Assembly (NCBI GenBank): GCA_022457155.1
Contig: JAJGOT010000091.1
Location: 248,001-312,000 of the forward strand
From: Cladopsammia gracilis
Lineage: Eukaryota; Cnidaria; Anthozoa; Scleractinia; Dendrophylliidae
DNA: 64,000 bases
Direction of reading: 5' to 3'
The notes beneath the pieces were generated by a model. The model worked only from the letters and a program-made list of their open reading frames with translations. It was not told the DNA's origin and made no database searches. Below, piece after piece: positions 10,009 to 55,813 of this stretch. The position numbers and the translations under genes were made by a program. Position 1 is the stretch's first letter. Every line of letters starts with the position of its first letter.

Positions 10009-10075
10009 TGAAAAGCATAACAATGCTAAGTTGCGTTTAAAGTTTTAAAGTTTTTCATCATTGCGTTTAAAGTTT

Positions 10076-10081
10076 AATAAA
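10076..10081 (+). terminator. polyadenylation signal for the 9340-9872 exon
   Basis: AATAAA lies 204 nt after the plus-strand stop and is followed by A-rich and then GT-rich DNA. It sits between two tail-to-tail reading frames, so the two 3' ends interleave. Confidence 0.45.
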
Positions 10082-10123
10082 ATCAACCACTTGTAAAAAA
10101 ACAAAAAAGTGTTTTGTGTCAGT

Positions 10124-10741
10124 TCATGCCTTATTGTCTTTCAAGGTCAAGACTTGGACGCCTTCGTTCACTAATTGTTTTTCGATGGCTTGTAAGCGGG
10201 GATCCTTCTCGAAATACTCGGGGATAACAAATTCGCCCGCGTGCTTGTCCATTCCAGCCTGCAAATTGTATTTGGCCAATTTACAGAATCCCTCGCAACA
10301 GTTGGGTTCCCAGTCGTAACCGTGTCCCGTGTGGTAGGCGGCATCTTTCTCCTCTTCGCACTCCCTGCACAAAATTTGGTCCAACAAGAGATCGCAGCGC
10401 ACTTGCCATTGCAGACCCCGACGACGTTCCTCTTTCGTGTCTTTCAAGCACTGCGTTTTCTCCCGTTGCAACGTCTCGACTCGAGCGCGGGCCTCTTTCA
10501 TGTCTGTCGACCACTGCATTTTGTCCCGTTGGTAGGTCTCGATTCGAGCGCGGAGGGACGAGTTGTCGGTCTTCAAGGCCTCGACGCAACTCGGAATCTC
10601 GCTCCAGGGTACCCCACTGAGTTGACACGTGACATCCGCCATGGCCTTTCGCAGGGACAGATTTTCTTTTTTCACTTCGTTCAATTCCTTGGTCAATAAC
10701 ACGTTCTTCACGGACAACGGATCCATCGCGTAGCCCAACAT
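10124..10741 (-). CDS. coiled-coil protein with C-terminal Cys/His cluster
   Basis: A complete 205-codon frame in visibly GC-richer DNA, starting MLGYAMDP (a second Met is residue 6). Residues about 10-115 are a heptad-rich coiled coil containing a 21-residue tandem repeat (RARIETYQRDKMQWS... at 65 and RARVETLQREKTQCL... at 86). Residues 125-153 hold C125, C128, H137, H140, C148, C149 and C153 (ILCREC, YHTGHGYDWEPNCCEGFC), a plausible metal site. I do not recognise the family. It is transcribed away from the modular gene at 10972, with 230 bp between the two starts, so the pair probably shares a promoter region. A small nuclear or cytoplasmic oligomeric regulator is possible but not shown by the sequence. 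Viral or transposon origin is an alternative. Confidence 0.65.
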   Translation of the reverse strand: MLGYAMDPLSVKNVLLTKELNEVKKENLSLRKAMADVTCQLSGVPWSEIPSCVEALKTDNSSLRARIETYQRDKMQWSTDMKEARARVETLQREKTQCLKDTKEERRRGLQWQVRCDLLLDQILCRECEEEKDAAYHTGHGYDWEPNCCEGFCKLAKYNLQAGMDKHAGEFVIPEYFEKDPRLQAIEKQLVNEGVQVLTLKDNKA

Positions 10742-10971
10742 CGTGCCCGTCCTTCTTTCTATCTCTCGAGGCGATTAAATAGAACAGGGTGGGGTGGCCA
10801 GAGACCCTGGGACGAGTGAAGAATCAAGACCCATACCCCCCCCCCCCCCCATGGGTACCCCGTTCCTTCCCGGCATGCTTCGTCCTCTTTCCCAAGGGTA
10901 TAATAAGAGCAAGGGGTTCCCACCGTTTTCACCCTTCACTCAGTTGTTACGAGCTATAGTAAAAAACAAAC
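10742..10971. promoter_or_regulatory. divergent promoter region
   Basis: The 230 bp separate two head-to-head genes. On the plus side, TATAATAAG at 10899 precedes an initiator-like TCAGTT at 10940-10945 and the ATG at 10972. On the minus side, CTATTTAATC (complement of about 10773-10782) lies about 40 bp before the ATG. A poly-C run at about 10835-10850 separates them. Assignment rests on motif spacing only. Confidence 0.5.
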
Positions 10972-11451
10972 ATGGCGTCCAACAAAGTGGTCACCCCCTC
11001 GGTGGTGGAAGTCATGCGTGCCAAGCGGAAACGTGTCATGGAGGAGAAGAAGAAGGAGACCGGGGCCGCCAAACGCGTGAAAGTGGAACCAGTGGGAGAG
11101 GAGGAGAAGGATCCATCCCAGACTGCCTCGCTTCCCCATGGAGAGTCTTATTGGGATTATCTACCCATCATCCTCCAAGAACGCATCCTGGATTTGGCGG
11201 CCAGGCAATTGCACCGCGAACGCATGGCACGGGTATGTTTCGACCTTGTATTTCATCGTGTTTGCCAACTTCATAAATGGGTCAAATATTCAGTTAGATG
11301 TGTCGGTTGCAACCATTGCTCCCGACGACGGCGTTACGGGACCATCAATCAATTATTAACCAAAGTGCGTTCCATCGAAAACCCCCATTCCGCCCATTGG
11401 ACCAATGGCTATTGCAACGAATGCCACGACGATTTGATGCTGGGTCTTTGA
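10972..11451 (+). CDS. modular gene: constant exon plus zinc module 1
   Basis: ATG at 10972 opens 159 codons. Residues 1-87 (10972-11232) are the constant part. It has basic nuclear-localisation-like patches (RAKRKR, AAKRVKVE), an acidic linker, then ESYWDYLPIILQERILDLAA, which resembles the first helices of an F-box-like motif. After CGG at 11230-11232 comes GTATGT, a textbook splice donor in phase 0. Read without splicing, the frame continues into module 1 (residues 88-159): Cys at module residue 11 (VFHRVC), Trp at residue 16, CNHCSR at 26-31, YGTINQLL, then a second CNEC pair and TGA at 11449-11451. Six paralogous modules follow downstream, each behind a phase-0 acceptor. The unspliced form would therefore carry module 1 and spliced forms another module. 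Partner and role are unknown; DNA, RNA or protein binding through a small Zn site is an inference. Confidence 0.75.
   Translation: MASNKVVTPSVVEVMRAKRKRVMEEKKKETGAAKRVKVEPVGEEEKDPSQTASLPHGESYWDYLPIILQERILDLAARQLHRERMARVCFDLVFHRVCQLHKWVKYSVRCVGCNHCSRRRRYGTINQLLTKVRSIENPHSAHWTNGYCNECHDDLMLGL
11233..11238 (+). promoter_or_regulatory. shared 5' splice donor GTATGT
   Basis: GTATGT after CGG in phase 0. The first codon of the putative intron (GTA, Val) is also the first residue of module 1, at the same alignment position as the first residue after each downstream acceptor. The donor thus sits exactly on the module boundary. Confidence 0.7.
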
Positions 11452-11499
11452 TGGGGTCTTTGTAACCTTTGTGTTTTTTTTTTCCTCTTTAACTACAAG

Positions 11500-11631
11500 G
11501 TGATGGTCGAAATCCGCACTTTGCTTCGCTGTCCTGTCACGCAATGGGTGCGACCCACTCCCAGTCGACGTTCATTTATTATGTGGGACCTCTCTTGCCT
11601 CTACTGCCGGCGACGTGTTTTTAATCTGTAA
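11500..11631 (+). CDS. zinc module 2 (alternative terminal exon)
   Basis: Acceptor: a pyrimidine-rich tract (about 11469-11490) leading to ctttaactacaag, AG at 11498-11499. The phase-0 frame of 43 codons to TAA 11629-11631 begins VMVEIRTLLRCPVTQW, with the family Cys at residue 11 and Trp at 16, then CLYCRR. The C-x2-C is spaced further from the Trp (17 residues between) than in other modules, and the usual G-x-I-D-D tail is missing because the stop follows CRRRVFNL. It is either a shortened or a decaying member of the array. Confidence 0.65.
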   Translation: MMVEIRTLLRCPVTQWVRPTPSRRSFIMWDLSCLYCRRRVFNL

Positions 11632-11662
11632 CGCTGTTATTTTTTTCACCCCACAAACACAG

Positions 11663-11821
11663 ATCACGGGACAGTTACGGGAATTGTACCTCTGCCCACG
11701 CTCGTTATGGTTGAACACCGAAAAACATACGAACAATCCTATGGTGTGCCAACATTGTAATCGTAAAGTCTTCAAGGGCAAAATTGATCGTTTGATTTCA
11801 GCCATGCTCCGTCACGCGTGA
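11663..11821 (+). CDS. zinc module 3 (alternative terminal exon)
   Basis: Acceptor atttttttcaccccacaaac ending acAG at 11661-11662. The phase-0 frame of 52 codons to TGA 11819-11821 begins ITGQLRELYLCPRSLW (Cys 11, Trp 16), then CQHCNR at 29-34 and FKGKIDRLI, the conserved G-x-I-D tail. The intron-like gap after module 2 is only 31 bp, so module 3 can be reached from the shared donor but not easily from a module 2 donor. The last 20 bases of the frame are part of a 27-bp inverted repeat (11801-11827 with 12123-12149). Confidence 0.7.
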   Translation: MTGQLRELYLCPRSLWLNTEKHTNNPMVCQHCNRKVFKGKIDRLISAMLRHA

Positions 11822-12149
11822 CCAGTAATCACAAGACTGAAATGAACATTTGAATATTTCTTTGTAACGTCCGAAATTTGAATGAAACCTTGAAGATCTC
11901 GCTAGAAAACACTTTGAAAGTCACGAGTTAACGGAAAAAATAACTTCACTACACGCATAAAAGACCTAATATTGTTCAGATCTGTAACATTTAAAGTAAA
12001 ATGATATTTTGTTGCTCTTTGTTTCCAAAAATTCGGTTAAATTCTAACGGGAGTTCCGAATCTCGGAATGAATTTACAAAACCGACGCGTAAACTTGAAA
12101 ACTCCATTCAAATTTTCAAAAATACTGGTCACGCGTGACGGAGCATGGC
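11801..12149. repeat. 27-bp perfect inverted repeat around a 295-bp AT-rich insert
   Basis: Positions 11801-11827 and 12123-12149 are exact reverse complements (gccatgctccgtcacgcgtg... on the left, ending ...cacgcgtgacggagcatggc on the right). They include the palindrome CACGCGTG and the coding end of module 3. The 295-bp interior is strikingly more AT-rich than the flanking modules and has no module-like frame. No target duplication is apparent. It looks like an insertion, or an inverted duplication event, in the widest gap of the array. Confidence 0.8.
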
Positions 12150-12206
12150 TGTAAAAGAAGGAAACGCAGAGATCACTAATTTTCATTTTTATTTCACACT
12201 GTACAG

Positions 12207-12347
12207 TTGATTTTAGAAATACAAGACTTGCCCGTTTGCGCCGTTTCTATTTGGGGCGATCCCACTCCGCCATCTTATTGTCAACATTGTTTGCGACGAT
12301 GGACAGACGGGGACATTGACGATCGTTTTCTTCTCCGTTTCTTTTAG
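12207..12347 (+). CDS. zinc module 4 (alternative terminal exon)
   Basis: Acceptor atttttatttcacactgtacag, AG at 12205-12206. The phase-0 frame of 46 codons to TAG 12345-12347 begins LILEIQDLPVCAVSIW (Cys 11, Trp 16), followed by YCQHCLRR (Cys 25 and 28) and DGDIDDRFL. Its last codons (RFLLRFF and the stop) are the pyrimidine tract and AG of the module 5 acceptor: the TAG stop is itself the acceptor AG. Module 4 is thus fully in frame yet has no spacer to module 5. Confidence 0.75.
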   Translation: MILEIQDLPVCAVSIWGDPTPPSYCQHCLRRWTDGDIDDRFLLRFF

Positions 12348-12596
12348 TTGATGCAAGAACTCGGGCAATCCATCGTGTGTCCGTGCACCAAATGGGTCAC
12401 CAATCCCGCGTTGCCTTTATATTGCCAACATTGTCGACGCATAGAACTGTTTGGGCGACTCGATTTTCTCGTCGCCCATTCCATCGATTGGGCTCACGAC
12501 GACTTTATGGACAGACAGGACGCCGTTCACAACGATGATCACCTGATTGCTTTTGCGGACAAACGTTTCAATTTACATTTTTATCAACACGTGTAA
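12348..12596 (+). CDS. zinc module 5 (alternative terminal exon, long tail)
   Basis: Acceptor cgttttcttctccgtttcttttag (AG 12346-12347). The phase-0 frame of 82 codons to TAA 12594-12596 begins LMQELGQSIVCPCTKW (Cys 11, Trp 16), then YCQHCRR (26 and 29) and FGRLDFL. It is the longest module: about 40 extra residues rich in Asp, His and aromatic residues (SIDWAHDDFMDRQDAVHND) follow the common fold, which may add a second interaction surface. Confidence 0.75.
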   Translation: MMQELGQSIVCPCTKWVTNPALPLYCQHCRRIELFGRLDFLVAHSIDWAHDDFMDRQDAVHNDDHLIAFADKRFNLHFYQHV

Positions 12597-12645
12597 TTAT
12601 TTTTTAAAAAACAATCGTGAATAAATGTTGTTGTTGTTTTTTCAG

Positions 12646-12807
12646 ATTCTGGATGAATTGCTGTCTTTTCGCGTTTGCCCCTTCTACCTATGGTCTAACC
12701 GATCCTTCTTTCTATCCTATCCATGCTGCCATTGCGTGCGGGGACTGGGCCTGGGAACCATTGACGATTGGATGAAATACAAAAAGCGACAAAACCACTC
12801 AACGTGA
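12646..12807 (+). CDS. zinc module 6 (alternative terminal exon)
   Basis: Acceptor tgttgttgttgttttttcag (AG 12644-12645). The phase-0 frame of 53 codons to TGA 12805-12807 begins ILDELLSFRVCPFYLW (Cys 11, Trp 16), then CCHCVR (27-32) and LGTIDDWM, with a basic tail KYKKRQNHST. The intron-like gap from module 5 is 49 bp. Confidence 0.75.
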   Translation: MLDELLSFRVCPFYLWSNRSFFLSYPCCHCVRGLGLGTIDDWMKYKKRQNHST

Positions 12808-12822
12808 CTTCCCGTTTTTCAG

Positions 12823-13002
12823 GTCATGACGCAATTGAAATCCCTGATCGTGTGTGGCTTCCGACAATGGACCACCCGCGGTGCCGATCCGTGGATTCTA
12901 TGCAACCATTGCATTCGGTATTTTGCTTTCGGGGCCATTGACGACTGGCTCGAAAAGACAAAACCGCCCCCATCAGAGACTTGCCATTACGGCTTCAATT
13001 GA
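12823..13002 (+). CDS. zinc module 7 (alternative terminal exon, last)
   Basis: Acceptor gacttcccgtttttcag (AG 12821-12822), only 15 bp after the module 6 stop. The phase-0 frame of 59 codons to TGA 13000-13002 begins VMTQLKSLIVCGFRQW (Cys 11, Trp 16), then CNHCIR (27-32) and FGAIDDWL, with a Pro-rich tail ending SETCHYGFN. It is the last module, and a polyadenylation signal follows 99 nt after the stop. Confidence 0.75.
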   Translation, partial: VMTQLKSLIVCGFRQWTTRGADPWILCNHCIRYFAFGAIDDWLEKTKPPPSETCHYGFN

Positions 13003-13100
13003 CGTCGACCCGACGAGGTAAACACCTGCCAGGGGCGTTCTCCCATTAGGGGATGGAAACCATGTCCCCGCTTGTAAAAATAGCTTTTCGTTGTGTGACT

Positions 13101-13106
13101 ATTAAA
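13101..13106 (+). terminator. polyadenylation signal of the module array
   Basis: ATTAAA is followed by a strongly T/GT-rich stretch (13112-13146), the expected arrangement of signal and downstream element. It is the only good candidate after module 7 and could serve all splice forms. Confidence 0.55.
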
Positions 13107-13134
13107 AGCCATTTTTTTGCGTTATTTTCTGTTT

Positions 13135-13400
13135 TTTTCTGTCTCTCTGGCCGAGCGGGATCTGGGACCCACCCCGCGTGCGGAACCAGAGCGACCAGTC
13201 ACCATCCCCGAGCGACCCCCGAGCGATTCCCGAACCATCCCGAGCTCTCCCGACCTTTTTTCGAGTGTTCTATGTATAAGCTATGTTAAAGCTATGTACT
13301 TCCGGTCTATGACGTCACCTCCATGATGTCATTGCACGTGTACAGATTTTTAATGAGATGCAAATGAGATGCTAATGAGATGTACTCGCTCCTGATTGGT
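13135..13400. promoter_or_regulatory. GC-rich enhancer/promoter-like cluster
   Basis: A GC-rich block with repeated CCCGAGCGA-like units (13196-13250) is followed by TATAAG at 13275, a perfect CRE TGACGTCA at 13310-13317, a CACGTG E-box near 13335, the octamer ATGCAAAT at 13358-13365 with a near copy ATGCTAAT at 13370, and an inverted CCAAT at 13394-13398. Such density is unusual in this window. No reading frame downstream is recognised, so it may serve the array from its 3' side or be the start of an unannotated transcript. Confidence 0.4.
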
Positions 13401-13462
13401 TGATATCGTGTTTCGCAAAGGTTGAGCGTCCCTTACTACTAATAGTAACTTTGACTGGACTG

Positions 13463-17175: not shown

Positions 17176-17220
17176 GCCATGGACAGCTGTTTCGTCCTAG
17201 TTAGGACTCGTCAGCATGGC
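17176..17220 (-). ncRNA. minimal type I hammerhead ribozyme, intact core
   Basis: On the minus strand the order is GCCATG (stem I), CTGACGA (core), GTCC-TAACTA-GGAC (stem II), GAAA (core), CAGCTG-T (very short stem III, ACAG/CUGU), C (cleavage site), CATGGC (stem I). All conserved core bases are present and all three stems pair. A stem III of this kind, without a loop, is the form known from Penelope-like elements, where it is thought to act as a dimer. Predicted cleavage is after the UC preceding CATGGC. Confidence 0.85.
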
Positions 17221-17260: not shown

Positions 17261-17305
17261 GCCATGTTGACGAGTCCTAATAAGGACGAAACAGCTGTCC
17301 ATGGC
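17261..17305 (+). ncRNA. hammerhead ribozyme copy with C3-to-U change
   Basis: Sense-strand partner of the motif at 17176-17220, with the same stems (GCCATG/CATGGC, GTCC/GGAC, ACAG/CTGT) and loop TAATAA. The core reads TTGACGA instead of CTGACGA. C3 is a catalytic-core position, so this copy, which lies in the orientation of the downstream ORF, is expected to be weak or dead. Confidence 0.75.
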
Positions 17306-24617: not shown

Positions 24618-26126
24618 TCACTCCTGTTTGATTTGTGAAATGTCAGTTAAGAATTCACTGATACTAAAAACACTGTCATGTTGATTGAAAGTAAACGTCC
24701 CTTTCTTGTGCATTCGTTTGTGTTGCTTAAGATTTCCTGCTTTAGTAAAACACTTGCCACAGTGGTCACATTCAAAAGGTTTCTCTCTACTGTGTGTTCG
24801 TTTGTGCTCCTTTAGACTTCCTGCTAGGGTAAAACACTTGCCATATTGGTGACATTCAAACGGTTTCTCTCCCCTGTGTTTTTGTTTGTGTTCCTTCAGA
24901 CGTAATTGGCTGAAGCATTTCCCACACTGGTGGCATTTCATAGGTTTCTCTCCACTGTGTGTTCGTTTGTGTTCCTTTAGATTTCCTGCTCTAGTAAAAC
25001 ACTTGCCACATTGGTCACATTCAAAAGGTTTCTCTCCACTGTGTGTTCGTTTGTGTTCCTTTAGATGCCCTGCTTGAGTAAAACACTTGCCACATTGGTC
25101 ACATTCATAAGGTTTCTCTCCACTGTGTGTTCGTTTGTGTTCCTTTAGATTTCCTGCTTTAGTAAAACACTTGCCACATTGGTCACATTCAAAAGGTTTC
25201 TCTCCAGTGTGTGTTCGTTTGTGTTCCTGTAGATGCCCTACTTGAGTAAAACACTTGCCACAGTGGTCACATGCCAAAGGTTTCCCTCCACTGTGTATTC
25301 GTTTGTGTTCCTTTAGACTTCTTGCTTTAGTAAAACACTTGCCACATTGGTCACATTCAAAAGTTTCTTCTCCACTGTGTGTTCGTTTGTGTTCCTGTAG
25401 ATGCCCTACTTGAGTGAAACACTTGCCACATTGATCACATTCAAAAGGTTTCTCTCCACTGTGTGTTCGTTTGTGTACCTTCAGACTTCCTGCTTTAGTA
25501 AAACTCTTGCCACAACGGTCACATTCAAAAGGTTTCTCTCTACTGTGTGTTCGTTTGTGTACCTTTAGACTTCCTGCTAGAGTAAAACACTTGCCACATT
25601 GATCACATTCAAAAGGTTTCTCTCCACTGTGTGTTCGTTTGTGTGCCTTAAGATTTCCTGCTTGAGTAAAATACTTGCCACATTCGTCACATTCATAAGG
25701 TTTCTCGCCACTGTGTGTTCGTTTGTGTTGCTTTAGATTTCCTGCTTTAGTAAAACACTTGCCACATTGGTCACATTCAAAAGGTTTTTCTCCAGTGTGT
25801 GTTCGTTTGTGTTCCTGTAGATGCCCTACTTGAGTAAAACACTTGCCACATTGGTCACATTCAAAAGGTTTCTCTCCACTGTGTGTTCGTTTGTGTTTCT
25901 TTAGATCTCCTGATTTATTAAAACACTTGCCACATTGGTCACATTCAAAAGGTTTTTCTCCAGTGTGTGTTCGTTTGTGTTCCTGTAGATGCCCTACTTG
26001 AGTAAAACACTTGCCACACTGGTTGCATGCAAAAGGTTTCTCCCCACAGTGTGTAATCTTGTGAAACTTCAGACTTCCTGCCATTTTATCACACTGACCA
26101 CACTTATATACATCTGCCCAATTCAT
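24618..26126 (-). CDS. zf1: 17-finger C2H2 zinc-finger protein
   Basis: A 502-residue frame made almost wholly of tandem C2H2 fingers of 28 residues (consensus [21 protein letters not shown] with a THSGEKP linker), typical of sequence-specific nuclear DNA-binding proteins. Finger 1 is degenerate (CGQC followed by only nine residues before the His pair). Fingers 2-14 and 17 are canonical. Finger 15 is one residue short (FSQLRLKEH). Finger 16 has lost its second Cys (CHQY). Contact positions -1, 3 and 6 vary (Q/K/T/L/R; S/N/H/D; E/V/Q/K/A) while the framework is nearly invariant. A 24-residue tail after the last finger ([16 protein letters not shown]) is shared with zf2. The start at 26126 is the first ATG after an in-frame stop. 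No KRAB, BTB or SCAN domain is seen; upstream exons may exist. Confidence 0.85.
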
Positions 26127-27929
26127 ACATTTGCCACAGTTTTTACATTTTTAAGTCATCTATCCCGGAATAGATATTCCTAAATTTGTCAGACTCAGTC
26201 CCACTGAAATTTGTAATCATTATGCAACATTATCATCTGCATGTTCTTCAATTTTGAGCATTAATCTGAAAAACAAGCAAATGGAAGACATTAGATTATT
26301 TCCAAACACTGGTGAGAATGTCCAAGTTAAAAATAAAAAAGTCTAACAAAATACTTAATGGTCCAAAATGATGCATACATACTAAGCTACATGCACCTTG
26401 GGGAATGTGCAGGAGTTTGCCAAGGTACTACAGAGAAAATATGCCATTTGCTTATGTTTGGCAGCCTGTTCTTGCAACAACAGTGTATTACCACTAACTA
26501 TGATGACCCGGTGATTCGGCAAAAAACAAGAGAGTAAAATGAAATCCACACTACCAGCCTAGTTTAGTTCTTGTGACACCAGGGCATGATCCTAACATTT
26601 CTGGGAGTGGATGGGTCACAATAGTTTCAGTTACATCATGTTATATTTTACTAATAATTTGTGTTTGCTAAATTTGATTGTAAATTATACAACCTGCCTT
26701 GATTAGCTTTGCTATATGCAGGTTGTATATTTCTTTAATTCGTTAAATTTAAACTATTGAAATAAAATAAAAAAAGAATTTAAAAAAAAGAACCGAGGCC
26801 ATTGTCCGCACCAACCAGTTTTCATTTGGAAATATAGAAATACACTAAGCTCTTTCCTTAAAAATGCATACATTTTTATTCCTTTTAGCATACTGTTCAC
26901 ATTGTTTCGACCACTGTCAGCATTTTCAAAAATAAAGTTTTTTTTTTTTTTTCAAATTCACCCACTTTGGAGATACCCTGCTATCAGAGTTTCCTTCCAT
27001 TTTCCTAGAAAAATCAATTTTATTTCTCTCGGAAGATCACAGGGGACTCTGGAGAGCATTCTCAAGAAGATCTGTTTCCAGGAGGTCAAAAATGCTGTCC
27101 ATTAGGACGAGGACTGATTCAACATCGCCATTTTGGGATACGATCAAAAAACAAAGGCATGCAATGTGTATGATAAGATAGTTCCAAGGAAACACATCAG
27201 GAGTACACTCAAAACTCCTAGTTCATAAAGAACATGTAGGCTAAAATTTGTCCAACAAGCTGTATAAGAATCTGTTTAGCCTTAACATTGAAACAGGTTC
27301 TTATTAGGAAAAATCAGTTAAAATGAAAAAAAAAGGAACCTGTTGCTGCACTAGAAGTGTCATACTATAAAGGACTTGTTGTGGGTTTAAATAAATCATA
27401 AGTCCCAGAACAGTTTCTCTGTTTGTTTGAAATGTAGTCACAACAGGCATAATGTACATTTCTGACACAGAGCCTAGAAACCACACCCATATTGAATTAG
27501 TCTTCTGACCAGCAAAAAGCACTTAAACCTAAATATCCTAATTTCTTAGTAGACACCAATATCTAAGGACCTTTTTAGACTAACTTGGAAAAATACTGCT
27601 TCTTATAGGCAGGTGGTTACTGTACGTTCTTCTGTTCTCAGACCTGCCCTTTCCATAATAAAAGTAAATAAATAGATTAATAAATAAATAAATAAATAAA
27701 TAAGCACTTCAGTTTGAATGATATCTCCTCTCAAGAATTTTCCTCCCAGAGTTTAAACCATAAGAATAGTTTTACCTTGTAACAAACATCAAGTCTGGCT
27801 CTGTCAGTCAATAATTTAACCAATCAAGCAACTGGTTAAAGAATTAATCTAACAATAGAACAGACAACAATAACTTTATGGTTATGTGGACAATTATTTA
27901 TAGGTAATTGTAGAAAGTCCATTGTTACT
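26127..27929. other. zf1 5' flank, duplicated, no clear exon
   Basis: Matches 62040-63060 and 41160-41780 in reverse. A possible upstream coding scrap reading MLKIEEHADDNVA (minus, near 26255) follows an acceptor-like tract in the zf2 copy (tgcttgtttttcag at 49660-49673). The scrap is broken differently in each copy, so I do not call it an exon. Confidence 0.45.
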
Positions 27930-42200: not shown

Positions 42201-43439
42201 TCAGTCGTCATCAACAACTGGGACAAGTACTATGAGTCTGTGAACCGCTCTTTCAATGCTTGTGTACTTTGCAGTGTCGCCCTGACACCGGTTCTTGTAC
42301 GATACAGTGACCCGGCGAACTTTGTTGTCGTGGCTGGGATGGACTTCAGTAACGATGCCGATCCTCCAAACACCTCGAAGAGCATTGCTGTCTTGCATCA
42401 AAACGACGTCCCCTTCCTTGACGTTCCTCCTTTCCACGTGCCATTTCGATCGTACGATTAGTCCCGGGAAGTAATCGCGGGTCCACTTTTCCCAGAAGCT
42501 ATGAACAACACGCTGGATGAAGTCAAGCTTGTATCTGTCCCCAACTCTTTGCTTAAATGGTCCCTGTGGCACGTCAGGAGAAGCTCTGCCGAGTAGCAGA
42601 TCATTCGGACAAAGGTAACTTCCATCATCTGGATGGGTTGGGTGACTACCAATCGACCTTTGATTAACAAGCTGCGCTGCTTCAAACATCACGGTTTGCA
42701 ACTCGCTAAAACTCATAACTTGATCTCCAACGGCCGCATTTAGCGCTTTCTTGATGGATTTCACCAATGCTTCTGTTACGCCGTTCATCCAGGGAGCATC
42801 ACCTGGAGTAAAACTCCATTCCATCTTATGCTTCACGCCGAATGCGTGGAGTTCGCGCTGGTCTAGCCCGCTGATAGCATCCTTTAACTCTTTAGATGCA
42901 GCCACGAGTTGGGTGCCACAATCGCTGTGGATCTTCTTAGGCCAGCCTCTGATACTTGAGAACCGCCGCATCACTTGAAGGAAGGAATCAGTCAAGTAAT
43001 CCTTGCTGACATCGACATGCACTGCACGGGAGGAGAAACAGACAAAGGTCACTCCATAGCATTTTCCGCGAACTCTCTTCTGCACCTCTCCCTTGATGGT
43101 AAATGGCCCGAAGAAATCTATTCCGACTGTATAGAATGGCGGCGAAGGCTGCAGTCGCTCCAAGGGCAGACTACTCATAACCTGGCCACTCAATCTTTGG
43201 AATTTCCTCTTGCATACGACGCACTTGTGACAAATGCTTTTGACTATCCTTTGGAGATTAGTAATCCAGAAACGACATCGGATTCTAGCAACAGCGGCAA
43301 CGCCAAGGTGTCCACCCTTCCTGTGTTCATCTTCAGCTATCAGTTGCGATAGACGGTGACTGAAGGGGAGAAGGATGAATTCCTGCCTGTTCCACGTCGC
43401 CTGCATCCAGCGTTCAGCTCTGCGACCTACTACAATCAA
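42201..43439 (-). CDS. BEL/Pao integrase
   Basis: 412-residue frame covering integrase. An N-terminal HHCC zinc-binding region (H39, H44, C73, C76; HRKGGHLGV, CHKCVVC) precedes the catalytic core with D108 (TVGIDFFG), D173 (IHSDCGTQ) and E223 (GVTEALVKS), a complete DDE triad. The C-terminal part has the WxxGxV-type segment (GVWRIGIVTEVHP) usual in BEL/Pao. It inserts the cDNA copy into chromosomes. In this copy it is separated from the preceding frame by a one-base shift near 43436, so it would not be made as part of the polyprotein without frameshifting. Confidence 0.92.
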   Translation of the reverse strand: MIVVGRRAERWMQATWNRQEFILLPFSHRLSQLIAEDEHRKGGHLGVAAVARIRCRFWITNLQRIVKSICHKCVVCKRKFQRLSGQVMSSLPLERLQPSPPFYTVGIDFFGPFTIKGEVQKRVRGKCYGVTFVCFSSRAVHVDVSKDYLTDSFLQVMRRFSSIRGWPKKIHSDCGTQLVAASKELKDAISGLDQRELHAFGVKHKMEWSFTPGDAPWMNGVTEALVKSIKKALNAAVGDQVMSFSELQTVMFEAAQLVNQRSIGSHPTHPDDGSYLCPNDLLLGRASPDVPQGPFKQRVGDRYKLDFIQRVVHSFWEKWTRDYFPGLIVRSKWHVERRNVKEGDVVLMQDSNALRGVWRIGIVTEVHPSHDNKVRRVTVSYKNRCQGDTAKYTSIERAVHRLIVLVPVVDDD

Positions 43440-44320
43440 GCCATCTTATACTTCGGACAGAGTCTAATAAACTTGCCCTCTTGGACGTCCTTAGCGATCG
43501 ACTCTTGCGCATCCCTGATCCAGAATCGTTCAGCCGCATCAACGTCTTCGGTCTTAAGCTCTCTCAGTCCGCTCACACCGCTGGGTGAGTGTTCGGCACC
43601 TTTCTTATAATGCTTATAAAGCTTCAGTATTCTAGCTGTAGTATTCATCAATAGCTCAATCTTACTGAACCTCCCGATGTCGATTCTGGCTGCCAACGTC
43701 TCTTTCTCCCTGGCGCTAACATTCATGACCACTTTGTGGCGCTCAGGTAGCTCTTCTACATTAGTATGTCTCGATACTGGCCACTCTTCTACTGGTTGCC
43801 TCAAAAACTCTGGGCCTCTCTGCCACGTGCTGCGTGGTCCTAGTTCCGTGGGGCTTTTCCCTCGAGTTACCCAGTCAGCAATGTTTAAGCTTCCTGCTAC
43901 CCAAAACCACTCCTGAGGACTTGTCTTCTCTTGAATTTCTCCGATTCGATTCGCTGCATAGGTATTGAAGCCATAGCTTTCCTTGCTTATCATGGCCTTG
44001 ACTATCTCGCTGTCTACAATGTGATAAACAGCAGTGAAGGTGTATCTGATTTCAGCCTGAACGAAAACTCTCAGTCGCTTGCCAATAACGGCACCACTCA
44101 GCTCAAGGCGTACAATGTCAACGACCTTGATAGGAGCTATCCTGTTTTTGCTGGCGATAATTCGTGCTTCGTATGTTCCGTTTTTCGTCAACCACCTTGC
44201 ATAGGCAACCGCCCCGTATGCATCGCCAGAGCCATCTGAGAAAACCACCAACACTGGGTCCCCAATCGCGTTGCTGGGTTTAATACATCTAGGGAACTCT
44301 ACTTCTTTTAACTGGAACAA
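43436..44320 (-). CDS. BEL/Pao RNase H and connection region
   Basis: 294-residue frame in the same register as the upstream RT frame, separated only by a TAG at 44339-44341. RNase H catalytic residues are all present: D29 (VFSDGSG), E73 (RLELSG), D103 (IVDSEI) and D149 (SLNIADW). It degrades the RNA strand during reverse transcription. It ends just short of the integrase zinc region because of the frameshift at about 43436. The displayed Met is internal to the polyprotein and not a true start. Confidence 0.9.
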   Translation of the reverse strand: MFQLKEVEFPRCIKPSNAIGDPVLVVFSDGSGDAYGAVAYARWLTKNGTYEARIIASKNRIAPIKVVDIVRLELSGAVIGKRLRVFVQAEIRYTFTAVYHIVDSEIVKAMISKESYGFNTYAANRIGEIQEKTSPQEWFWVAGSLNIADWVTRGKSPTELGPRSTWQRGPEFLRQPVEEWPVSRHTNVEELPERHKVVMNVSAREKETLAARIDIGRFSKIELLMNTTARILKLYKHYKKGAEHSPSGVSGLRELKTEDVDAAERFWIRDAQESIAKDVQEGKFIRLCPKYKMA

Positions 44321-44338
44321 CTCCTCGAAGAAAGTTAC

Positions 44339-47300
44339 CTAGTCGCGTCGCAGGTGTTCGGGAATGGGATCATCCCAATCCAGTTTCTCGTCCCGTCCCC
44401 AGAGCCTGCGAAGCATGATCTTTGCGCGAACCATGAAAGGGGATAATAGACCCATAGGGTCGTATATTCCGTTGACTTGAGAGAGAATCGTTCTCTTGGT
44501 TAGTGCTTCCGGGACGCTTTCTGGGATTTGCTCTCGAGATAAATCTGGCTGTGTGTGTATCTTTCGTTTCTTTTTAGAGAAGTTCGGTTTGATTCGGTAG
44601 CAAAGCGTGTCTTTAGAGGAGTTCCAATTCATACCAAGCACTCTTTCCAATTCTGTGGCGTCACTACTTGTGCCGGTCAAACCTCGCACGAGGTGCTGAT
44701 CTTCATGGTTCTGTATTTGAGCCCCGTGCTTTATTTCCAAGCCTTCTCCAGACATGATCCATCCCCTAATTCTGAACCCGCCAAGCTCAAGGATTTTGTC
44801 AATTTCAGATGTCAAGGTCAAGGCTTCCTGTCTTGTCTTAACGCTTTCCGGGATGTCATCCATATAGCTGTTTCTCAGAATAGTTTCACTGGAGCGTGGA
44901 AACTCATCTCTGCTCATTTCTGCTGTTTTGCGAAGCGCTACAATCGCTATGGTTCCTGACGGGCGGTCTCCCATGTTTACGGCAGTCATTACATATGTTT
45001 CAGGCTCTTTCTGGTCATCCAGGTCTCTCCACAGGAAACGATGGGTCATTTGATCTAACAGAGGTATATCAATGGAATGAAACATCTTCTGAATGTCTCC
45101 GATTACAGCTACTCTTTCCTCTCTAAACCTTAGCAAAACGCCGAGCAAATTATTCAACATGTCTGGGCCCTTGGCATAGTACTCGTTTAATACATGTCCC
45201 TGGAAGTTTGCACTACTGTTAAACACGATGCGGCAAGGAGTGGTCTTGCTTTCTGGTTTAAGAACTTCATGGTGCGATATGTAGAACACCGGTCCCTCGT
45301 AGTCTTTAATCTCTTTTTCGGTCAATTTGCGGGCAACACCTCTTTCAATCATACTTTCGATCTGCTTACTGTATACTGCGGCGTGTACTGTGTCTTTGCT
45401 GAGACGCCTCTCTGTGGCTTTCAGAGCGGATAAGGCAGCACTTTTGTTGTCTGGTAACGCTCTAGGATCCTTGATCCACGGGTAACCTGCTTCCCATTTC
45501 TTCTGATCTGCCTTATAGACAAGTTTGTCTTCAATAATCTTGTATTCCCTTTCCTCCTTTAGTGTCATGTTTTTTCCACCTGGATGACATTGTCCACATT
45601 TGCATGACCCACATCTTGGGTTGCATTCAACCCCTAACTGCTCCAACTTGTAGAAGTCATCCACTCGCACCATGGCATGATGGACAGTTGCGTGTTGCAG
45701 AACTTTTTTGGTCTCTTCGACGAGTGAAGGGTGTGTACCTCCTATTAGCGTTACATATCTGTTCTCTAGCAGCAACAAGTGTCCGGTCGCTTGCTTTCGC
45801 ACGGGGTGAAAGGCAGCGTACTCGTAGCCAATGAGACAGTCAACCTGTCCATTTCTCGGTCTGTCTAACTGATGAGGACTCGTGTTTTCAAACAGCTTCA
45901 CGATACCGTCTACCTCTATTGGTGTGATGTCTGTAGATATGCGGTCTATCCCAAGTACGCTTATGGCAACAACAGCATTAGCGTTGTCAATCAGGCAAAG
46001 TTCATAGCGGCAGGACTCTAGCTCTTCAACTGCTCCCCCAACCTTAACGATTTGAAGGTTGACTTTGTGTCCTGATAGGTTCATTAGTTTAGCTTGGTGA
46101 AAAGTTATGAAGGAGAGCGTGCTTCCGCCATCCCACAGTGTGTTCAGGGTGGTCCACTTGCCTCTTCCATTGCCTCCTTTAAGCTTCTGGAGTTGTAAAA
46201 GGATCTCTCCATCTCCGCCATTTGTCATTCCGAATACCTCATCACTATAGAGGGATATGCTGGATGCGTGTGCTTCGTGCAACATGTAGTGGTGAGGCAT
46301 ACCGCAACCGTCTTCTCTACACGTGAAGTTTCTTCTGCAGGATTTTGTTGTGTGGCCTTGCTCAAGACACCTAAAGCAAGCATTGTTCTCCCGAACCAAC
46401 TTAACCTTCTCTGACGCTGATTTGCTCTCAAAGGCTTTGCACCTCCATATGGGGTGCCCATGGTGGTTGGGGTGCATCCAACAACGCGGTTTTTCTTCAC
46501 TGGACTTTCTGTCAACTAATAAAGTATAGCTGGTCTCACTGATTCCCGCTCTAAGGTCGCAAAACTTGTATTCGATCCTCTCTCTAAATTCCAGCAGTAG
46601 GTTCAGGAGGGCTGGGAATTTATCCCTTGCGATCCCAGGTTGTGTCTTGCTGGTAACAATCTTTATCCACTCCTTCTCAATGGATTCCGGTAGCTTTTCT
46701 TCAATCATACTGACAATGGTGGAGTTACTGATTTCTTTTTCGAGGCTCAGACTCTTCAGATCTCTGTGCGCTCTTTCGATCACATTTATCATCTCAAGCG
46801 TTCCTTTAGGGTCTGCATCTACACTCCTTTTCAGCTTCTTTATCTCCAACATTATGGCGTCCACCAGCTTGCCTTCATCTCCATATTTCTTGTCGAGTCG
46901 CTCCCATATTCGTTCGATGTTTTCTCCTAAACCCTCTACTTCATCTCTTACTTCATTAGATAGGTAGTGCCGTAATACAAATGCTTCCTCACTAGGCTTG
47001 TAGAGCGGTTTAATGTGCTTTAAAAATTCCTCTTTAAATTTCGGGTACTTTCTTAAGTCTCCTTTAAATGGGTCAAATTTTATTTTCTCGAGTCTGATTC
47101 CACTGGATGGAACGGGCTTTTCATAGGGTGCAGCAGCTGATTTATCCTCTGGACTGTTTTGGCTGATAAAGATCTCCGCCCTGTCACAAATCTTGTAGTA
47201 CTTTTCGAGGATGGTTGCAATCCATTGCGACTCGCTTTCCATTGCGTCTTTGCTGGTAAGAGATCTCATGTACTCTTCTTGCGCCTTCTCGCAGGCAGAC

Positions 47301-47740
47301 ATCCTAATATCCAGTCTTTTCCGGGCGTCCTTAACTGCACCAACAAGATGCTCAGCGGTTGTAGCACTCGCAGTTGCTATAAGATTTTGGATGGTCTCAA
47401 TTGACGTCTGGATTTTAATTTCCTCCTGGTCTCTTCGAGCTAACAATTCTTCTATCCGTTCCTTTGCTTTAAGTCTAGCTTTCTCATTTTCTTCCTCCTT
47501 AGCAATTTCTGCCAATTCGCGTGACCTTATCTCCGCTTCCTCCGTCTCCCTACGAATTTTTAATTCCATTTCCTGTGCTTTAGCCGCGTTGGATTCTTCC
47601 AAATAGCTGTCTGTTTTCACTTCCATCTCACTAAATGTTCGATTTAGTTCATCAATCCATTGCTCATCGAGTTCATCCGCAGGAAGTAATTTCACGTACG
47701 CGTCGTGTTTGTCTTGAACTTCTTTCCATACAGCTCTCAA
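44339..47740 (-). CDS. BEL/Pao gag-protease-reverse transcriptase
   Basis: 1133-residue frame. Residues about 45-110 are a charged coiled coil of Gag. About 215-370 match the Gag region of BEL elements known as DUF1759 (KIKFDPFKGDLRKYPKFKEE). A zinc knuckle CFRCLEQGHTTKSC lies at about 455-468. An aspartic protease motif (LWDGGST, where D-S/T-G is more usual) lies at about 535-541. RT covers about 820-1000, with AVIGDIQKMFHSI and the catalytic YMDD at about 959-962. It ends at TAG at 44339-44341 in the middle of the polyprotein, likely a nonsense mutation. The N-terminus of Gag lies upstream in another frame (47745-47897). Confidence 0.93.
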   Translation of the reverse strand: MRAVWKEVQDKHDAYVKLLPADELDEQWIDELNRTFSEMEVKTDSYLEESNAAKAQEMELKIRRETEEAEIRSRELAEIAKEEENEKARLKAKERIEELLARRDQEEIKIQTSIETIQNLIATASATTAEHLVGAVKDARKRLDIRMSACEKAQEEYMRSLTSKDAMESESQWIATILEKYYKICDRAEIFISQNSPEDKSAAAPYEKPVPSSGIRLEKIKFDPFKGDLRKYPKFKEEFLKHIKPLYKPSEEAFVLRHYLSNEVRDEVEGLGENIERIWERLDKKYGDEGKLVDAIMLEIKKLKRSVDADPKGTLEMINVIERAHRDLKSLSLEKEISNSTIVSMIEEKLPESIEKEWIKIVTSKTQPGIARDKFPALLNLLLEFRERIEYKFCDLRAGISETSYTLLVDRKSSEEKPRCWMHPNHHGHPIWRCKAFESKSASEKVKLVRENNACFRCLEQGHTTKSCRRNFTCREDGCGMPHHYMLHEAHASSISLYSDEVFGMTNGGDGEILLQLQKLKGGNGRGKWTTLNTLWDGGSTLSFITFHQAKLMNLSGHKVNLQIVKVGGAVEELESCRYELCLIDNANAVVAISVLGIDRISTDITPIEVDGIVKLFENTSPHQLDRPRNGQVDCLIGYEYAAFHPVRKQATGHLLLLENRYVTLIGGTHPSLVEETKKVLQHATVHHAMVRVDDFYKLEQLGVECNPRCGSCKCGQCHPGGKNMTLKEEREYKIIEDKLVYKADQKKWEAGYPWIKDPRALPDNKSAALSALKATERRLSKDTVHAAVYSKQIESMIERGVARKLTEKEIKDYEGPVFYISHHEVLKPESKTTPCRIVFNSSANFQGHVLNEYYAKGPDMLNNLLGVLLRFREERVAVIGDIQKMFHSIDIPLLDQMTHRFLWRDLDDQKEPETYVMTAVNMGDRPSGTIAIVALRKTAEMSRDEFPRSSETILRNSYMDDIPESVKTRQEALTLTSEIDKILELGGFRIRGWIMSGEGLEIKHGAQIQNHEDQHLVRGLTGTSSDATELERVLGMNWNSSKDTLCYRIKPNFSKKKRKIHTQPDLSREQIPESVPEALTKRTILSQVNGIYDPMGLLSPFMVRAKIMLRRLWGRDEKLDWDDPIPEHLRRD

Positions 47741-48960: not shown

Positions 48961-49612
48961 TTACCAACAACAACAACAAACAAAAATTTTATTAGACATA
49001 TTAAACTGAAATACAGTTGTGCTGCAAATTAGCAAAGAAACGCTATTCAAGGCAGTGAAAAGTAATCTAATTGAAAATAATGAAAGTGAGACAATATAAT
49101 AAAATAGAAGCTGATCTTTACTGTAAAGTTACAGATTAGATGAAATCATGATGTTGGTGGCAGAAACAGGAAATAAATGAAATATGCAAATTATAACATT
49201 TTCATTTGCTTAATATCACAAAGTATTTGGGGAACATCAATATAGTCATCTGTTTTCTGAAGAATCTCCAGAAGAATTTGTTTAATTTTCGATTTGAATT
49301 GAGATTTCTTCAATGATTTCAGAGATTTAACGGTAGGTAGTCCGTTCCATACCATATCACCAGTTCTCGCAAATGATTTTTTCATTTTTTCCCCACAATA
49401 CACAACCATAGGTACATGTAAGATAAATACTTATCAAAGATTGGGTTTTTACATGTCCTTTAAAGTTTCGCGATAATATATTTACATTTTTACTAATTTT
49501 ACTACTAATATAATCAATATGGTCATGCCATGACAGGAAACAATCAATAACTAATCCAAAATATTTAATACTACAGACTTGACTTAACTTAACTTGGACT
49601 TAATTGAACTCA
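48961..49612 (-). pseudogene. LINE fragment B with (TTG)n 3' tail
   Basis: Minus strand. The frame 49409-49191 reads SFARTGDMVWNGLPTVKSLK and SQFKSKIKQILLE, the extreme C-terminus of a LINE ORF2. The 3' UTR follows to 48961, ending with taataaaatttttgtttg and TTG repeats. 5'-truncated. Fragments A and B together fill the gap between 48360 and 49613 in the zf2 upstream flank. Confidence 0.75.
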
Positions 49613-49871
49613 ACTTGGACGTTCTCACCAGTGTTTGGAAATAACATCATGTCTTCCATTTGCTTGTTTTTCAGATCAGTGCTCAAAATTGAAGAACATG
49701 CAGATGATAATGTTGCATATTGGCTACAAATTTCAATGGGACAGTGACTCTGACAAATTTAGCAATATCTATTCAGGGAAAGATGACCTTAAAATGTAAA
49801 AACTGTGGCAAATGTATGAATTGTGCAGATGTATATAAAGGTGGTCAAACCAGTGCAGTCAGTGTGATAAA

Positions 49872-54019: not shown

Positions 54020-54613
54020 CCCTGGATTTGCTTCACTTAAACACTGCAATTTTACCCCCGATTTCTCGAATACTCGATTACTCGAAACTCCCAAAAACTC
54101 GAACGCCAGTGAGAGAAACTGACCCACGATAAGTCGAACCGCTGAAACGTATTTTAAAACCACTCATAACCCCCATTTTTCTACTTTCTCACCTGAATCA
54201 AAACTAGTATTGGAAGGGACTTTGAGAGTATGGTTGCCGAAATGTAGCAAAATTCGAAAAAAATATTTTTTTATTCGATAAAATATATTTTCATTCGATA
54301 AAATTTATTTTCATTCGATAAAATATATTTTCATTCGATAAAATATATTTTCATTCGATAAAATATATTTTCATTCGATAAATAATATATTTTCACTTGA
54401 TAAAATATATTTTCATTCGATAAAATATTTTCATTCGATAAAAAAATTCGTTCGATAAAAAATATTTTCATTCGATAAAATCTCGTGGTATCATAAGGCC
54501 TGGTCACTTGGCTTAAACATGGCGACGGACGAAGATGACCCTGTGGGAAGACTTTTTTTTCAGGGCTTGTCCCCCTACTCAACATCTGCGAGTGCAATAG
54601 TTCGAATGTTAAC

Positions 54614-55024
54614 TTGGACTTTCCTTCAGCAGCAGTGTTATTCAATCAGTTGGACATGACGTTATCAGTTCTTAGAAGTGTTTCAGACGCTGTTGTAAAT
54701 ATGGCGAATTTTGACCAGTTCCAAGAACTTTGTTCATGCTTTTCTGAAATTCACTTGTATTGGTGGAATAGGATGGCTGAAATTGGAAGGAGAACCACAA
54801 GCATGGCCGATATGGGTCCGCGTTCTGTCGCCGTTAGTGGAGCAGGAAGACCACGATTTGTAATTGCACAGGAACTTTTGGAAAACGGTTGCACTTGGAT
54901 ACAAATAGCTCGCATGCTGCACGTTTCCCGATGGACCATTCAACGGAGAGTGGTGGAGTACGGATTAAACTGTGGAAGGTGGTCTGATATAAATGATGAT
55001 CAACTAGACACTATCATGAGAGGA
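54614..55024 (+). pseudogene. HTH N-terminal part of integrase-like transposase, left arm
   Basis: Reads AAVLFNQLDMTLSVLRSV, then CSCFSEIHLYWWNRMAEIGR, GAGRPRFVIAQELLENG and the helix-turn-helix WIQIARMLHVSRWTIQRRVV (about 54893-54955). This resembles the DNA-binding front half of cnidarian integrase-core transposases. The catalytic rve domain is absent because the sequence runs through the loop into the inverted arm. The N-terminal 85 bp are in another frame. Confidence 0.7.
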
Positions 55025-55035
55025 TACATATCACG

Positions 55036-55521
55036 CTTCCACAGTTTAATCCATACTCCACCACTCTCCGTTGAATGGTCCATCGGGAAACGTGCAGCAT
55101 GCGAGCTATTTGTATCCAAGTGCAACCTAGGCTTCTCAAGTTTTCCAAAAGTTCCTGTGCAATTACAAAATAATCGTGGTCTTCCTGCTCCACTGACGGC
55201 GACAGAACGCGGACTCATATCGGCCATGCTTGTGGTTCTCCTTCCAATTTCAGCCATCCTATTCCACCAATACAAGTGAATTTCAGAAAAGCATGAACAA
55301 AGTTCTTGGAACTGGTCAAAATTCGCCATATTTACAACAGCGTCTGGTCCGTCTGAAACACTTCTAAGAACTGATAACGTCATGTCCAACTGATTGAATA
55401 ACACTGCTGCTGAGGGAAAGTCCAAGTTAACATTCGAACTATTGCACTCGCAGATGTTGAGTAGGGGGACAAGCCCTGAAAAAAAGTCTTCCCACAGGGG
55501 TCGATTCGCTGAGGGAATCAT
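55036..55521 (-). pseudogene. HTH gene fragment, inverted right arm
   Basis: Minus-strand copy of the left-arm gene. The frame starts MIPSANRPLWEDFFSG and includes the segment up to SGAGRPR, then loses register before the helix-turn-helix. Relative to the left arm it keeps 16 more bases near the start (tcccctcagcgaatcg-like) and has a six-base insertion (VSDGPDAVV versus VSDAVV), so the arms have diverged independently. Confidence 0.65.
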
Positions 55522-55813
55522 CTTCGTCCGTCGCCATGTTTAAGCCAAGTGACCAGGCCTTATGGTACCACGTGATTTTATCGAATGAAAATATTTTTTT
55601 ATCGAATGAAAATATTTTATCGAATGAAAATATATTATCGAATGAAAATATATTTTATCGAATGAAAATATATTATCGTATGAAAATATATTATTTATCG
55701 AATGAAAATATATTTTATCGAATGGAAATATATTTTATCGAATGGAAATATATTTTATCGAATGAAAATATATTTTTTTCGAATTTTGCTACATTTCGGC
55801 AACCATATGAGAG

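What the first reader, a model, noticed from the sequence alone, without database searches (positions are those of the whole stretch)
10972..13106. One splice donor facing six in-phase acceptors: an array of alternative C-terminal zinc modules
Seven short frames follow one constant exon. Counting from the donor boundary (module 1) or from each acceptor AG (modules 2-7), every module has Cys at residue 11 and Trp at residue 16. Residue 5 is always Leu or Ile, then comes C-x-[HY]-C-x-R, and six of seven have G-x-[IL]-[DN]. All six acceptors are phase 0, the donor CGG|GTATGT is phase 0, and every module ends in its own stop. Since the first module after the junction ends translation, choice of acceptor alone would select the C-terminus, while one poly(A) signal (13101) could serve all forms. 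Unspliced RNA gives module 1. I know of no described family with this layout; it recalls alternative-acceptor coding in small DNA viruses. Shared alignment and splice phase are seen; the splicing itself is inferred.
Basis: partly seen in the sequence, partly recalled or inferred. Interest (0 to 1): 0.93.

Follow-up and report, generated by a model that had tools for sequence, protein, structure and literature searches.

The report
Viral gene with swappable zinc tails
In what is likely the remnant of a Polinton-type DNA virus, one splice donor faces six in-phase splice acceptors, each followed by its own small, predicted zinc-binding ending, so that one gene would likely make seven proteins with different tails; the same layout recurs in distant relatives, although the splicing itself has not been seen.

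Summary
One 87-codon exon ends at CGG|GTATGT (11232/11233) and is followed by seven homologous modules, six behind phase-0 acceptors, each with its own stop. The six acceptors are the six best of 44 AGs in the region. Profiles built without a given module still find it.

New here: the window copy is a truncated right-hand piece of a repeated element, at least about 16 kb long in one copy, with a phospholipase A2-like gene. A distant relative carries an rve integrase with a chromodomain-like end, which points to a Polinton/adintovirus-type endogenous virus. Other copies mostly carry seven or eight modules; donor and acceptors are nearly invariant.

Two relatives only about 40% identical keep the GTATGT donor and eight modules. 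Two single-module relatives lack the donor GT. This supports alternative-acceptor choice of the C-terminus.

No RNA data, structure or zinc assay was available; splicing, zinc binding and function are inferred.

The parts
10061..13440 (.). Truncated right-hand piece of the repeated Polinton/adintovirus-type element
   Evidence: Similarity to other copies starts at 10061 in most of them and fades between 13172 and 13440; many other copies share more than 4 kb further left among themselves
10124..10741 (-). Divergently transcribed gene, 205 aa, coiled-coil-like with a Cys-rich C-terminal part; kept in other copies
   Evidence: pN/pS 0.53 over 16 copies, 8 of them with a frame-breaking indel
10775..10781 (-). 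TATA-like box (TATTTAA on the minus strand) upstream of the divergent gene
   Evidence: sequence; consensus match only
10899..10907 (+). TATA-like box (TATAATAAG) upstream of the constant exon
   Evidence: sequence; consensus match only
10972..11232 (+). Constant exon: N-terminal basic stretch (KRKR, KRVKV) and the 'WDYLP...ILDLAARQLHRERM' domain with His81
   Evidence: pN/pS 0.43 over 21 copies
11230..11238 (+). Splice donor CGG|GTATGT, phase 0; GTATGT in 16 of 16 copies checked
11233..11451 (+). Module 1 (unspliced read-through), stop TGA
11500..11631 (+). Module 2 behind acceptor AAG|GTG; lacks the G-x-I-D tail; stop TAA
   Evidence: AG intact in 15 of 15 located copies
11663..11821 (+). 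Module 3 behind CAG|ATC; last residues and stop lie in the inserted element, most other copies end differently
   Evidence: AG intact in 16 of 16
11798..12152 (.). Foldback (MITE-like) insertion of about 355 nt with 32-nt inverted ends, absent at this place in 16 of 16 other copies; a similar stretch lies elsewhere in L026
12207..12347 (+). Module 4 behind CAG|TTG; its stop TAG is at the same time the acceptor of module 5
   Evidence: AG intact in 16 of 16
12348..12596 (+). Module 5 behind TAG|TTG, stop TAA
   Evidence: AG intact in 16 of 16
12620..12625 (+). Inner poly(A) signal AATAAA with GT-rich stretch downstream, between modules 5 and 6
   Evidence: present in 13 of 14 copies where the place was located
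12646..12807 (+). Module 6 behind CAG|ATT, stop TGA
   Evidence: AG intact in 13 of 14
12823..13002 (+). Module 7 behind CAG|GTC, stop TGA
   Evidence: AG intact in 15 of 15
13101..13106 (+). Distal poly(A) signal ATTAAA

Best explanation
This is a gene of what is likely a degraded Polinton/adintovirus-type endogenous virus, in which one donor likely splices to any of six in-phase acceptors, so that one constant domain would carry one of seven alternative, predicted zinc-binding C-termini. Shown by sequence: the homologous modules, their phases and stops, the ranked splice sites, their conservation in other copies, the recurrence of the layout in a distant lineage, and the phospholipase-like and integrase neighbours in relatives. 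Inferred: that the splices occur; that RNA left unspliced gives tail 1; that the inner poly(A) signal (12620) biases the choice towards tails 1-5 and the distal one (13101) allows tails 6-7; that His81 of the constant exon joins the three invariant cysteines of whichever module is spliced on, so that splicing completes one zinc site; and that the basic, probably nuclear constant part brings different tails to different partners, as small DNA-virus early proteins do. Modules appear to multiply by tandem duplication.
For: Splice sites: six acceptors are the six best of 44 AGs and the donor the best GT in its region. Module homology starts at the boundary; leave-one-out profiles recover all seven. 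Little room for separate promoters: stop-to-next-exon gaps of 48, 31, 385 (insertion), 0, 49 and 15 nt.

Conservation: GTATGT in 16 of 16 copies L009-L024; acceptor AG in 15/15, 16/16, 16/16, 16/16, 13/14 and 15/15 for m2-m7 where located. pN/pS over 19 to 21 copies: constant 0.43, m1 0.45, m2 0.50, m3 0.70, m4 0.51, m5 0.37, m6 0.76, m7 0.19.

Replication: L027 and L028, 41% and 40% identical to the window over the matched part of constant domain and module 1, have AAG|GTATGT as their best donor and eight modules each. L027's seven acceptors rank 1-6 and 14 of 61 AGs; L028's rank 2, 4, 5, 6, 9, 10 and 16 of 76. Six modules compared between these two: pooled pN/pS 0.31.

Natural control: in L025 and L026 the profile finds only module 1 in the 10 kb fetched, and the donor place reads CTATGT and ATATGT.

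Virus: PLA2-like domain E 1e-10 in L009; rve E 3e-12 and Chromo E 1e-4 (the latter under Pfam's cut-off) in one L027 frame.

His81 is invariant in the 10 constant domains aligned; m2 has three Cys and no His.
Against: No RNA, protein or structural data; structure prediction was off. pN/pS intervals of m3, m4 and m6 reach above 1. Many copies carry frameshifts or stops: for instance 11 of 18 other copies have a frame-breaking indel in the m7 stretch measured (place within it not checked). Between L027 and L028 the constant part shows no constraint (1 synonymous, 4 nonsynonymous differences) and one module exceeds 1. m2 lacks the module tail. The extra modules in L027 (two) and L028 (one) were recognised only after the AG ranking pointed to them, so they are not an independent test; in L028 the AGs of ranks 1, 3, 7 and 8 are not module acceptors. 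L012 has lost the m2 acceptor. L025 and L026 resemble each other and may stand for one event. No profile named the constant domain or the modules. Hexon, PolB and terminal repeats were not shown for this element by any profile.
Confidence: 0.85

Rival explanations
1. The modules are separate small genes or exons with their own promoters, or are joined to the constant exon by trans-splicing as in mod(mdg4).
For: Modules are self-contained and each ends in its own stop; mod(mdg4) in insects works by trans-splicing from independent promoters (PMC12692577 and PMC4667647, passages read).
Against: Gaps between a stop and the next exon are 0-49 nt apart from the insertion, leaving little room for promoters; four of seven modules have no Met at residue 1 or 2; the cis donor GTATGT is kept in 16 of 16 copies and is lost in the two array-less relatives L025 and L026.
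Confidence: 0.05
2. The array is a graveyard of decaying duplicates of the last exon, with only module 1 (read-through) and perhaps one acceptor in use.
For: m2 is shortened; m3 and m6 have pN/pS of 0.70 and 0.76 with intervals above 1; a number of copies have broken modules.
Against: Acceptor AGs are kept in 91 of 92 located sites, all seven window modules are open, constraint is clear for m1, m2, m5 and m7, and an array of eight persists in a lineage about 40% identical, pooled pN/pS of six modules 0.31.
Confidence: 0.08
3. The modules are cassette exons that are chained into one longer protein with several zinc units.
For: Donor-like sites in phase 0 lie inside m1 (AAA|GTGCGT, 11364), m2 (TGG|GTGCGA, 11547) and m3 (ATG|GTGTGC, 11743), and AAG|GTGATG at the m2 acceptor.
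Against: The sites in m2 and m3 would cut off the C-x2-C half of the module. No GT scoring above 4 lies inside m4-m7; the others above 4 in 11450-13120 are at 11499 and 12822, both at acceptors, and 13017, after m7's stop.
Confidence: 0.02

Closest known systems
Human adenovirus E1B alternative splicing (E1B-496R, -156R, -93R, -84R)
   Same: One donor inside an early-gene frame, three alternative acceptors, a shared N-terminus of 79 aa and different C-terminal parts; the full-length transcript carries the full frame (PMC9663300, passages read).
   Different: Three acceptors that are not described there as an array of homologous modules; no sequence relation to E1B found here (no such Pfam match).
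Drosophila lola and insect mod(mdg4)
   Same: A constant 5-prime part joined to one of many 3-prime exons, most of which encode zinc domains (PMC1947980, PMC4667647, passages read).
   Different: Host genes with a BTB domain and, for mod(mdg4), trans-splicing from separate promoters; private 3-prime ends are recalled. Here no BTB match, about 1.8 kb in all, a viral element, shared 3-prime end signals.
Polyomavirus T antigens and other small DNA tumour virus early genes
   Same: One first exon; read-through gives a short protein with a Cys-rich zinc tail, splicing gives another C-terminus (recalled; search listing only).
   Different: No homologous array known to me; no sequence match found here.
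Adintoviruses / Polintons (Mavericks)
   Same: rve integrase with a chromodomain-like C-terminus in one frame (L027), PLA2-like gene (L009), multi-copy integrated element; the adintovirus definition was read in passages of PMC11071296.
   Different: I saw no description of an alternative-acceptor module array in them (searches; listings, besides the passages).

Membership tests
Adintovirus / Polinton (Maverick) | Retrovirus-like (rve) integrase with C-terminal chromodomain | tested here: met
   In the distant relative L027, 7880-8950: rve E 2.6e-12, Chromo E 1.1e-4 (under Pfam's cut-off); beside a nearer copy, L029 4732-5343, Chromo only at E 0.037. The window copy itself has lost this part
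Adintovirus / Polinton (Maverick) | PolB with OTU-like N-terminus and Hexon | tested here: inconclusive
   PF03175 gives 218 matches in this genome (76 of 3788 candidates scored, list cut), none of the listed rows beside an array copy; L029 frames resemble Polinton capsid proteins by recall only, no profile match
Adintovirus / Polinton (Maverick) | Terminal inverted repeats and short target duplications (recalled) | tested here: inconclusive
   Only an inverted copy of the promoter stretch was found between the fetched parts; element ends were not located
Constant-5-prime / variable-3-prime zinc exon genes (lola, mod(mdg4)) | BTB domain in the constant part | tested here: not met
   No BTB match at E up to 10
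Constant-5-prime / variable-3-prime zinc exon genes (lola, mod(mdg4)) | Several alternative C-terminal exons with related metal-binding motifs | tested here: met
   By layout: seven homologous modules here, eight in L027 and L028; metal binding and splicing themselves untested
F-box / SCF adaptor | Significant F-box profile match | tested here: not met
   A typed F-box consensus is found at E 3e-21, the constant pieces are not; a profile of 10 constant domains ranks an F-box consensus 2nd and SKP2 13th of 1893 reported strings, nearly all shuffles; L027 matches PRANC only at E 0.084
C2H2 zinc finger | C-x2-4-C ... H-x3-5-H, Pfam zf-C2H2 match | tested here: not met
   No module matches PF00096; one of nine rows touches a ZNF462 finger at E 0.057; the invariant residues are C11, W16, C-x2-C, R
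Adenovirus E1B | Sequence homology to E1B | tested here: not met
   No Pfam family at E 0.01, no E1B family at E 10

The most novel reading that the evidence does not exclude
A virus keeps a magazine of interchangeable zinc tails behind one donor: each splice completes a composite zinc site, with one histidine from the constant exon and three cysteines from the chosen module, and so folds a different effector from one gene; the magazine grows and shrinks by module duplication as host targets change. It would be, to my knowledge, the first viral counterpart of variable-exon arrays, compressed into 1.8 kb, with a stop codon that doubles as an acceptor.
Probability: 0.35. Interest if true: 0.92.

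Novelty: new variant of a known kind. Interest (0 to 1): 0.82.

Why it matters
If the splices are real, a small integrated DNA virus encodes at least seven proteins from one promoter by acceptor choice alone, a degree of C-terminal diversity that I know only from host genes such as lola and mod(mdg4). Array-bearing and array-less relatives sit in one genome, so the birth of an alternative-splicing array, the gain or loss of its donor and the changes in its module number can be followed directly. It also offers a sequence signature (a GTATGT donor overlapping Val-Cys, then C11/W16/C-x2-C modules behind acceptors) with which to look for such genes in other Polintons and adintoviruses.

Tried and rejected
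Searches that gave nothing: IMG/VR with the constant+m1 protein, the divergent protein, P0001 and two DNA patterns; GTDB contigs, two scans; INPHARED phages by DNA; 5.8 billion proteins with the divergent gene and with the module alignment. The constant+m1 search returned 2 proteins, P0001 and P0002, of 38 candidates; P0002's tail follows another reading frame of module 1.

Considered and dropped: F-box membership (weak resemblance only); C2H2 fingers; chained cassette exons; separate promoters. The module tree with the second lineage was largely unresolved, with long branches; the pairing of m4 with one L027/L028 module had support 89/93. PDB matches to the constant+m1 protein are to designed repeat proteins with low-complexity character (E 8e-5 at best), to the modules weak (best 0.003, a short CxHCxR stretch), to the constant domain at chance level. 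An ATPase search in IMG/VR gave one 28-residue match of no use.

The acceptor and donor matrices are generic metazoan frequencies typed from general knowledge, not trained on this genome; the pyrimidine count is the model-free check for acceptors.

For alignment A5 I used 10 constant domains and left out P0002 and L033 (near-duplicates of used rows) and L037 (no such frame printed).
Full report
The observation. From the boundary, Cys11 and Trp16 are in 7 of 7 modules, residue 5 is Leu or Ile in 7 of 7, C-x-[HY]-C-x-R in 7 of 7, and G-x-[IL]-[DN] in 6 of 7. Similarity starts at the boundary and falls away upstream, apart from the splice-signal letters. Against 20,000 random sets of six AG-led open stretches from the same window (1082 available, both strands) the score of m2-m7 is 15 standard deviations out and is never reached. 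Profiles made without one module still find it at E 2e-13 to 3e-4 among stop-to-stop frames of 20 residues or more in all six frames of the window, while the best other stretch is at 0.14 or worse. Three modules (m4, m6, m7) match a DNA pattern that 100 shuffles of the window never match.

The splice signals. Scored with a generic matrix, the six acceptors are ranks 1 to 6 of the 44 AGs in 11233-13100, and the donor is the best GT from 10950 to 13120. The acceptor matrix looks mostly at intron letters, so this is nearly independent of the coding homology. A plain pyrimidine count separates the six from the other 38 at p = 3e-7. The next AG upstream is 35 to 134 nt away. Layout is very tight: m4's stop TAG is m5's acceptor, and m7's exon begins 15 nt after m6's stop. 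Cleavage there would remove m6 and m7, so poly(A) choice may be a second switch; this is inference.

What it belongs to. A genome search answered at the thirteenth attempt: the window lies in an unnamed 878-Mb assembly, and the 159-residue constant-plus-m1 protein gives 99 matches, fragments included. Of the listed rows 45 (the window's own among them) cover at least residues 1-156, 35 of these without a stop inside. I fetched 20 regions of 10 kb. Other copies resemble the window only from about 10061 to about 13172-13440, but many share more than 4 kb further left among themselves, and 10 kb left of one copy is matched nearly throughout by another copy. That makes about 16 kb in the copy of L029 plus L009. 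The window copy is thus a truncated right-hand piece. Left of the array, L009 encodes a phospholipase A2-like domain (PF08398, E 1e-10). In the distant relative L027 the neighbour frames include an integrase with rve (E 3e-12) and a chromodomain match (E 1e-4, under its cut-off) and a RING-like protein (E 0.006, under its cut-off). An rve integrase with C-terminal chromodomain is part of the published adintovirus description (PMC11071296, passages). Hexon- and ATPase-like frames were seen by eye and are recalled resemblances, not profile matches. PolB of the PF03175 kind is abundant in this genome (218 matches, list cut), but no listed row sits beside an array copy. I call it Polinton/adintovirus-type and do not claim more.

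Conservation between copies. In the 16 copies L009-L024 GTATGT is present in 16 of 16; acceptor AGs are intact in 15/15, 16/16, 16/16, 16/16, 13/14 and 15/15 for m2 to m7, sites that could not be located being left out. Four further copies, L003 and L005-L007, failed because I had not turned them; turned, all four have GTATGT. Module numbers by profile: seven in L009-L014, L016 and L024 (there module 1 is split by a stop), eight in L018-L023, six in L017 and five in L015, which has lost its right part; seven in L003 and L006, eight in L007, nine in L005, which carries a second copy of the m4-m5 pair. Some of these modules are broken, above all in L022, L003 and L005. The eighth module lies between m6 and m7. 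Arrays thus seem to change by tandem duplication. pN/pS among 19 to 21 copies (the window's included) is 0.19 to 0.76, with intervals below 1 for the constant exon, m1, m2, m5 and m7 and reaching above 1 for m3, m4 and m6. Copies with frameshifts or stops were kept in, position by position; frame-breaking indels were found in 0 copies for the constant exon and m1, and in 3, 2, 1, 2, 1 and 11 for m2 to m7.

A second lineage and two natural controls. L027 and L028 match the query at 41% and 40%. Both have AAG|GTATGT as the best donor, and a profile made only from the window modules finds six and seven modules there behind pyrimidine-rich acceptors. The AG ranking then pointed to two more in L027 (5353, 6437) and one in L028 (5297) that fit Cys11, Trp16 and C-x2-C, giving eight each; this recognition came after the fact. 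Ranks of the acceptors: 1-6 and 14 of 61, and 2, 4, 5, 6, 9, 10 and 16 of 76; L028's ranks 1, 3, 7 and 8 are not module acceptors. Pooled pN/pS of six modules between the two is 0.31; one of them exceeds 1, and the constant part shows 1 synonymous and 4 nonsynonymous differences. In contrast, L025 and L026, 81% identical to the window at the DNA level where they match, show one module only, and where the donor should be they read CTATGT and ATATGT; they resemble each other and may stand for one event. More distant genes (L032-L036) have the same constant domain on a Cys-bearing tail and no module found by the profile. So donor and array are both present or both absent in the few cases seen.

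The constant domain and the zinc idea. No Pfam family matches the constant domain or the modules with confidence. Ten aligned constant domains share invariant S, W, D, P, I, L, H, C and W. m2 holds exactly three Cys and no His, so if all modules bind metal in one way, the fourth ligand should come from outside the module; His81 of the constant exon is invariant in those ten. This composite site is a prediction. The basic stretch AAKRVKVE resembles a known nuclear import signal (recalled). An F-box-like fold was tested and not supported at significance.

Another change in the window copy. A foldback element of about 355 nt with 32-nt inverted ends lies between m3 and m4 and is absent at this place in 16 of 16 other copies (L009-L024), while a similar stretch lies elsewhere in L026. 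It replaced the end of m3: most other copies read on to a different tail.

How it compares. Layouts with one constant part and many 3-prime zinc exons are known in insect genes (lola, mod(mdg4): PMC1947980, PMC4667647, PMC12692577, passages), and one donor with three acceptors and a 79-residue common N-terminus in adenovirus E1B (PMC9663300, passages). What differs is the combination: homologous modules, one donor, hardly any room for private promoters, viral setting. My searches (listings) showed no such array in Polintons or adintoviruses; many papers are not in the library. The paper that I recall as founding the adintoviruses was not held.

Limits. No transcript, protein or structure was available.

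Noticed in passing
window 17176-17220 (-) and 17261-17305 (+): Two type I hammerhead ribozymes 40 nt apart in opposite orientation (Rfam, E 1e-9 and 1e-5), near a frame that looks like a Penelope-type element (recalled).
   Followed up: no
window 54273-55784: A 1.5-kb foldback: the stretch matches its own reverse complement at 89% over its whole length.
   Followed up: no
window 24707-26585, 49612-51545, 62588-64000: Three dispersed C2H2 zinc-finger array regions, 86-90% identical, in both orientations.
   Followed up: no
window 10830-10910; L027 upstream of 4880 (turned); L029 770-860: A similar promoter stretch (CCCATACCC...ATGGGTAC, then a TATA-like box) precedes the array gene in both lineages, and an inverted copy of the L009 stretch lies near the start of another frame of the element.
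   Followed up: partly
L029 1511-2110 (-): A gene with a weak match to DNA-processing protein A (PF02481, E 5e-7, at the cut-off) inside a Polinton-type element.
   Followed up: no
L032-L036: Array-less genes with the same 'WDYLP...LHRERM' domain joined to a Cys-bearing tail; a domain without a Pfam match.
   Followed up: partly
window 11364/11365 and 11499/11500: A further phase-0 donor-like site inside m1 (AAA|GTGCGT) and a dual acceptor/donor site at m2 (AAG|GTGATG) that would allow re-splicing.
   Followed up: no
window 42201-47740 (-): BEL/Pao retrotransposon frames.
   Followed up: no
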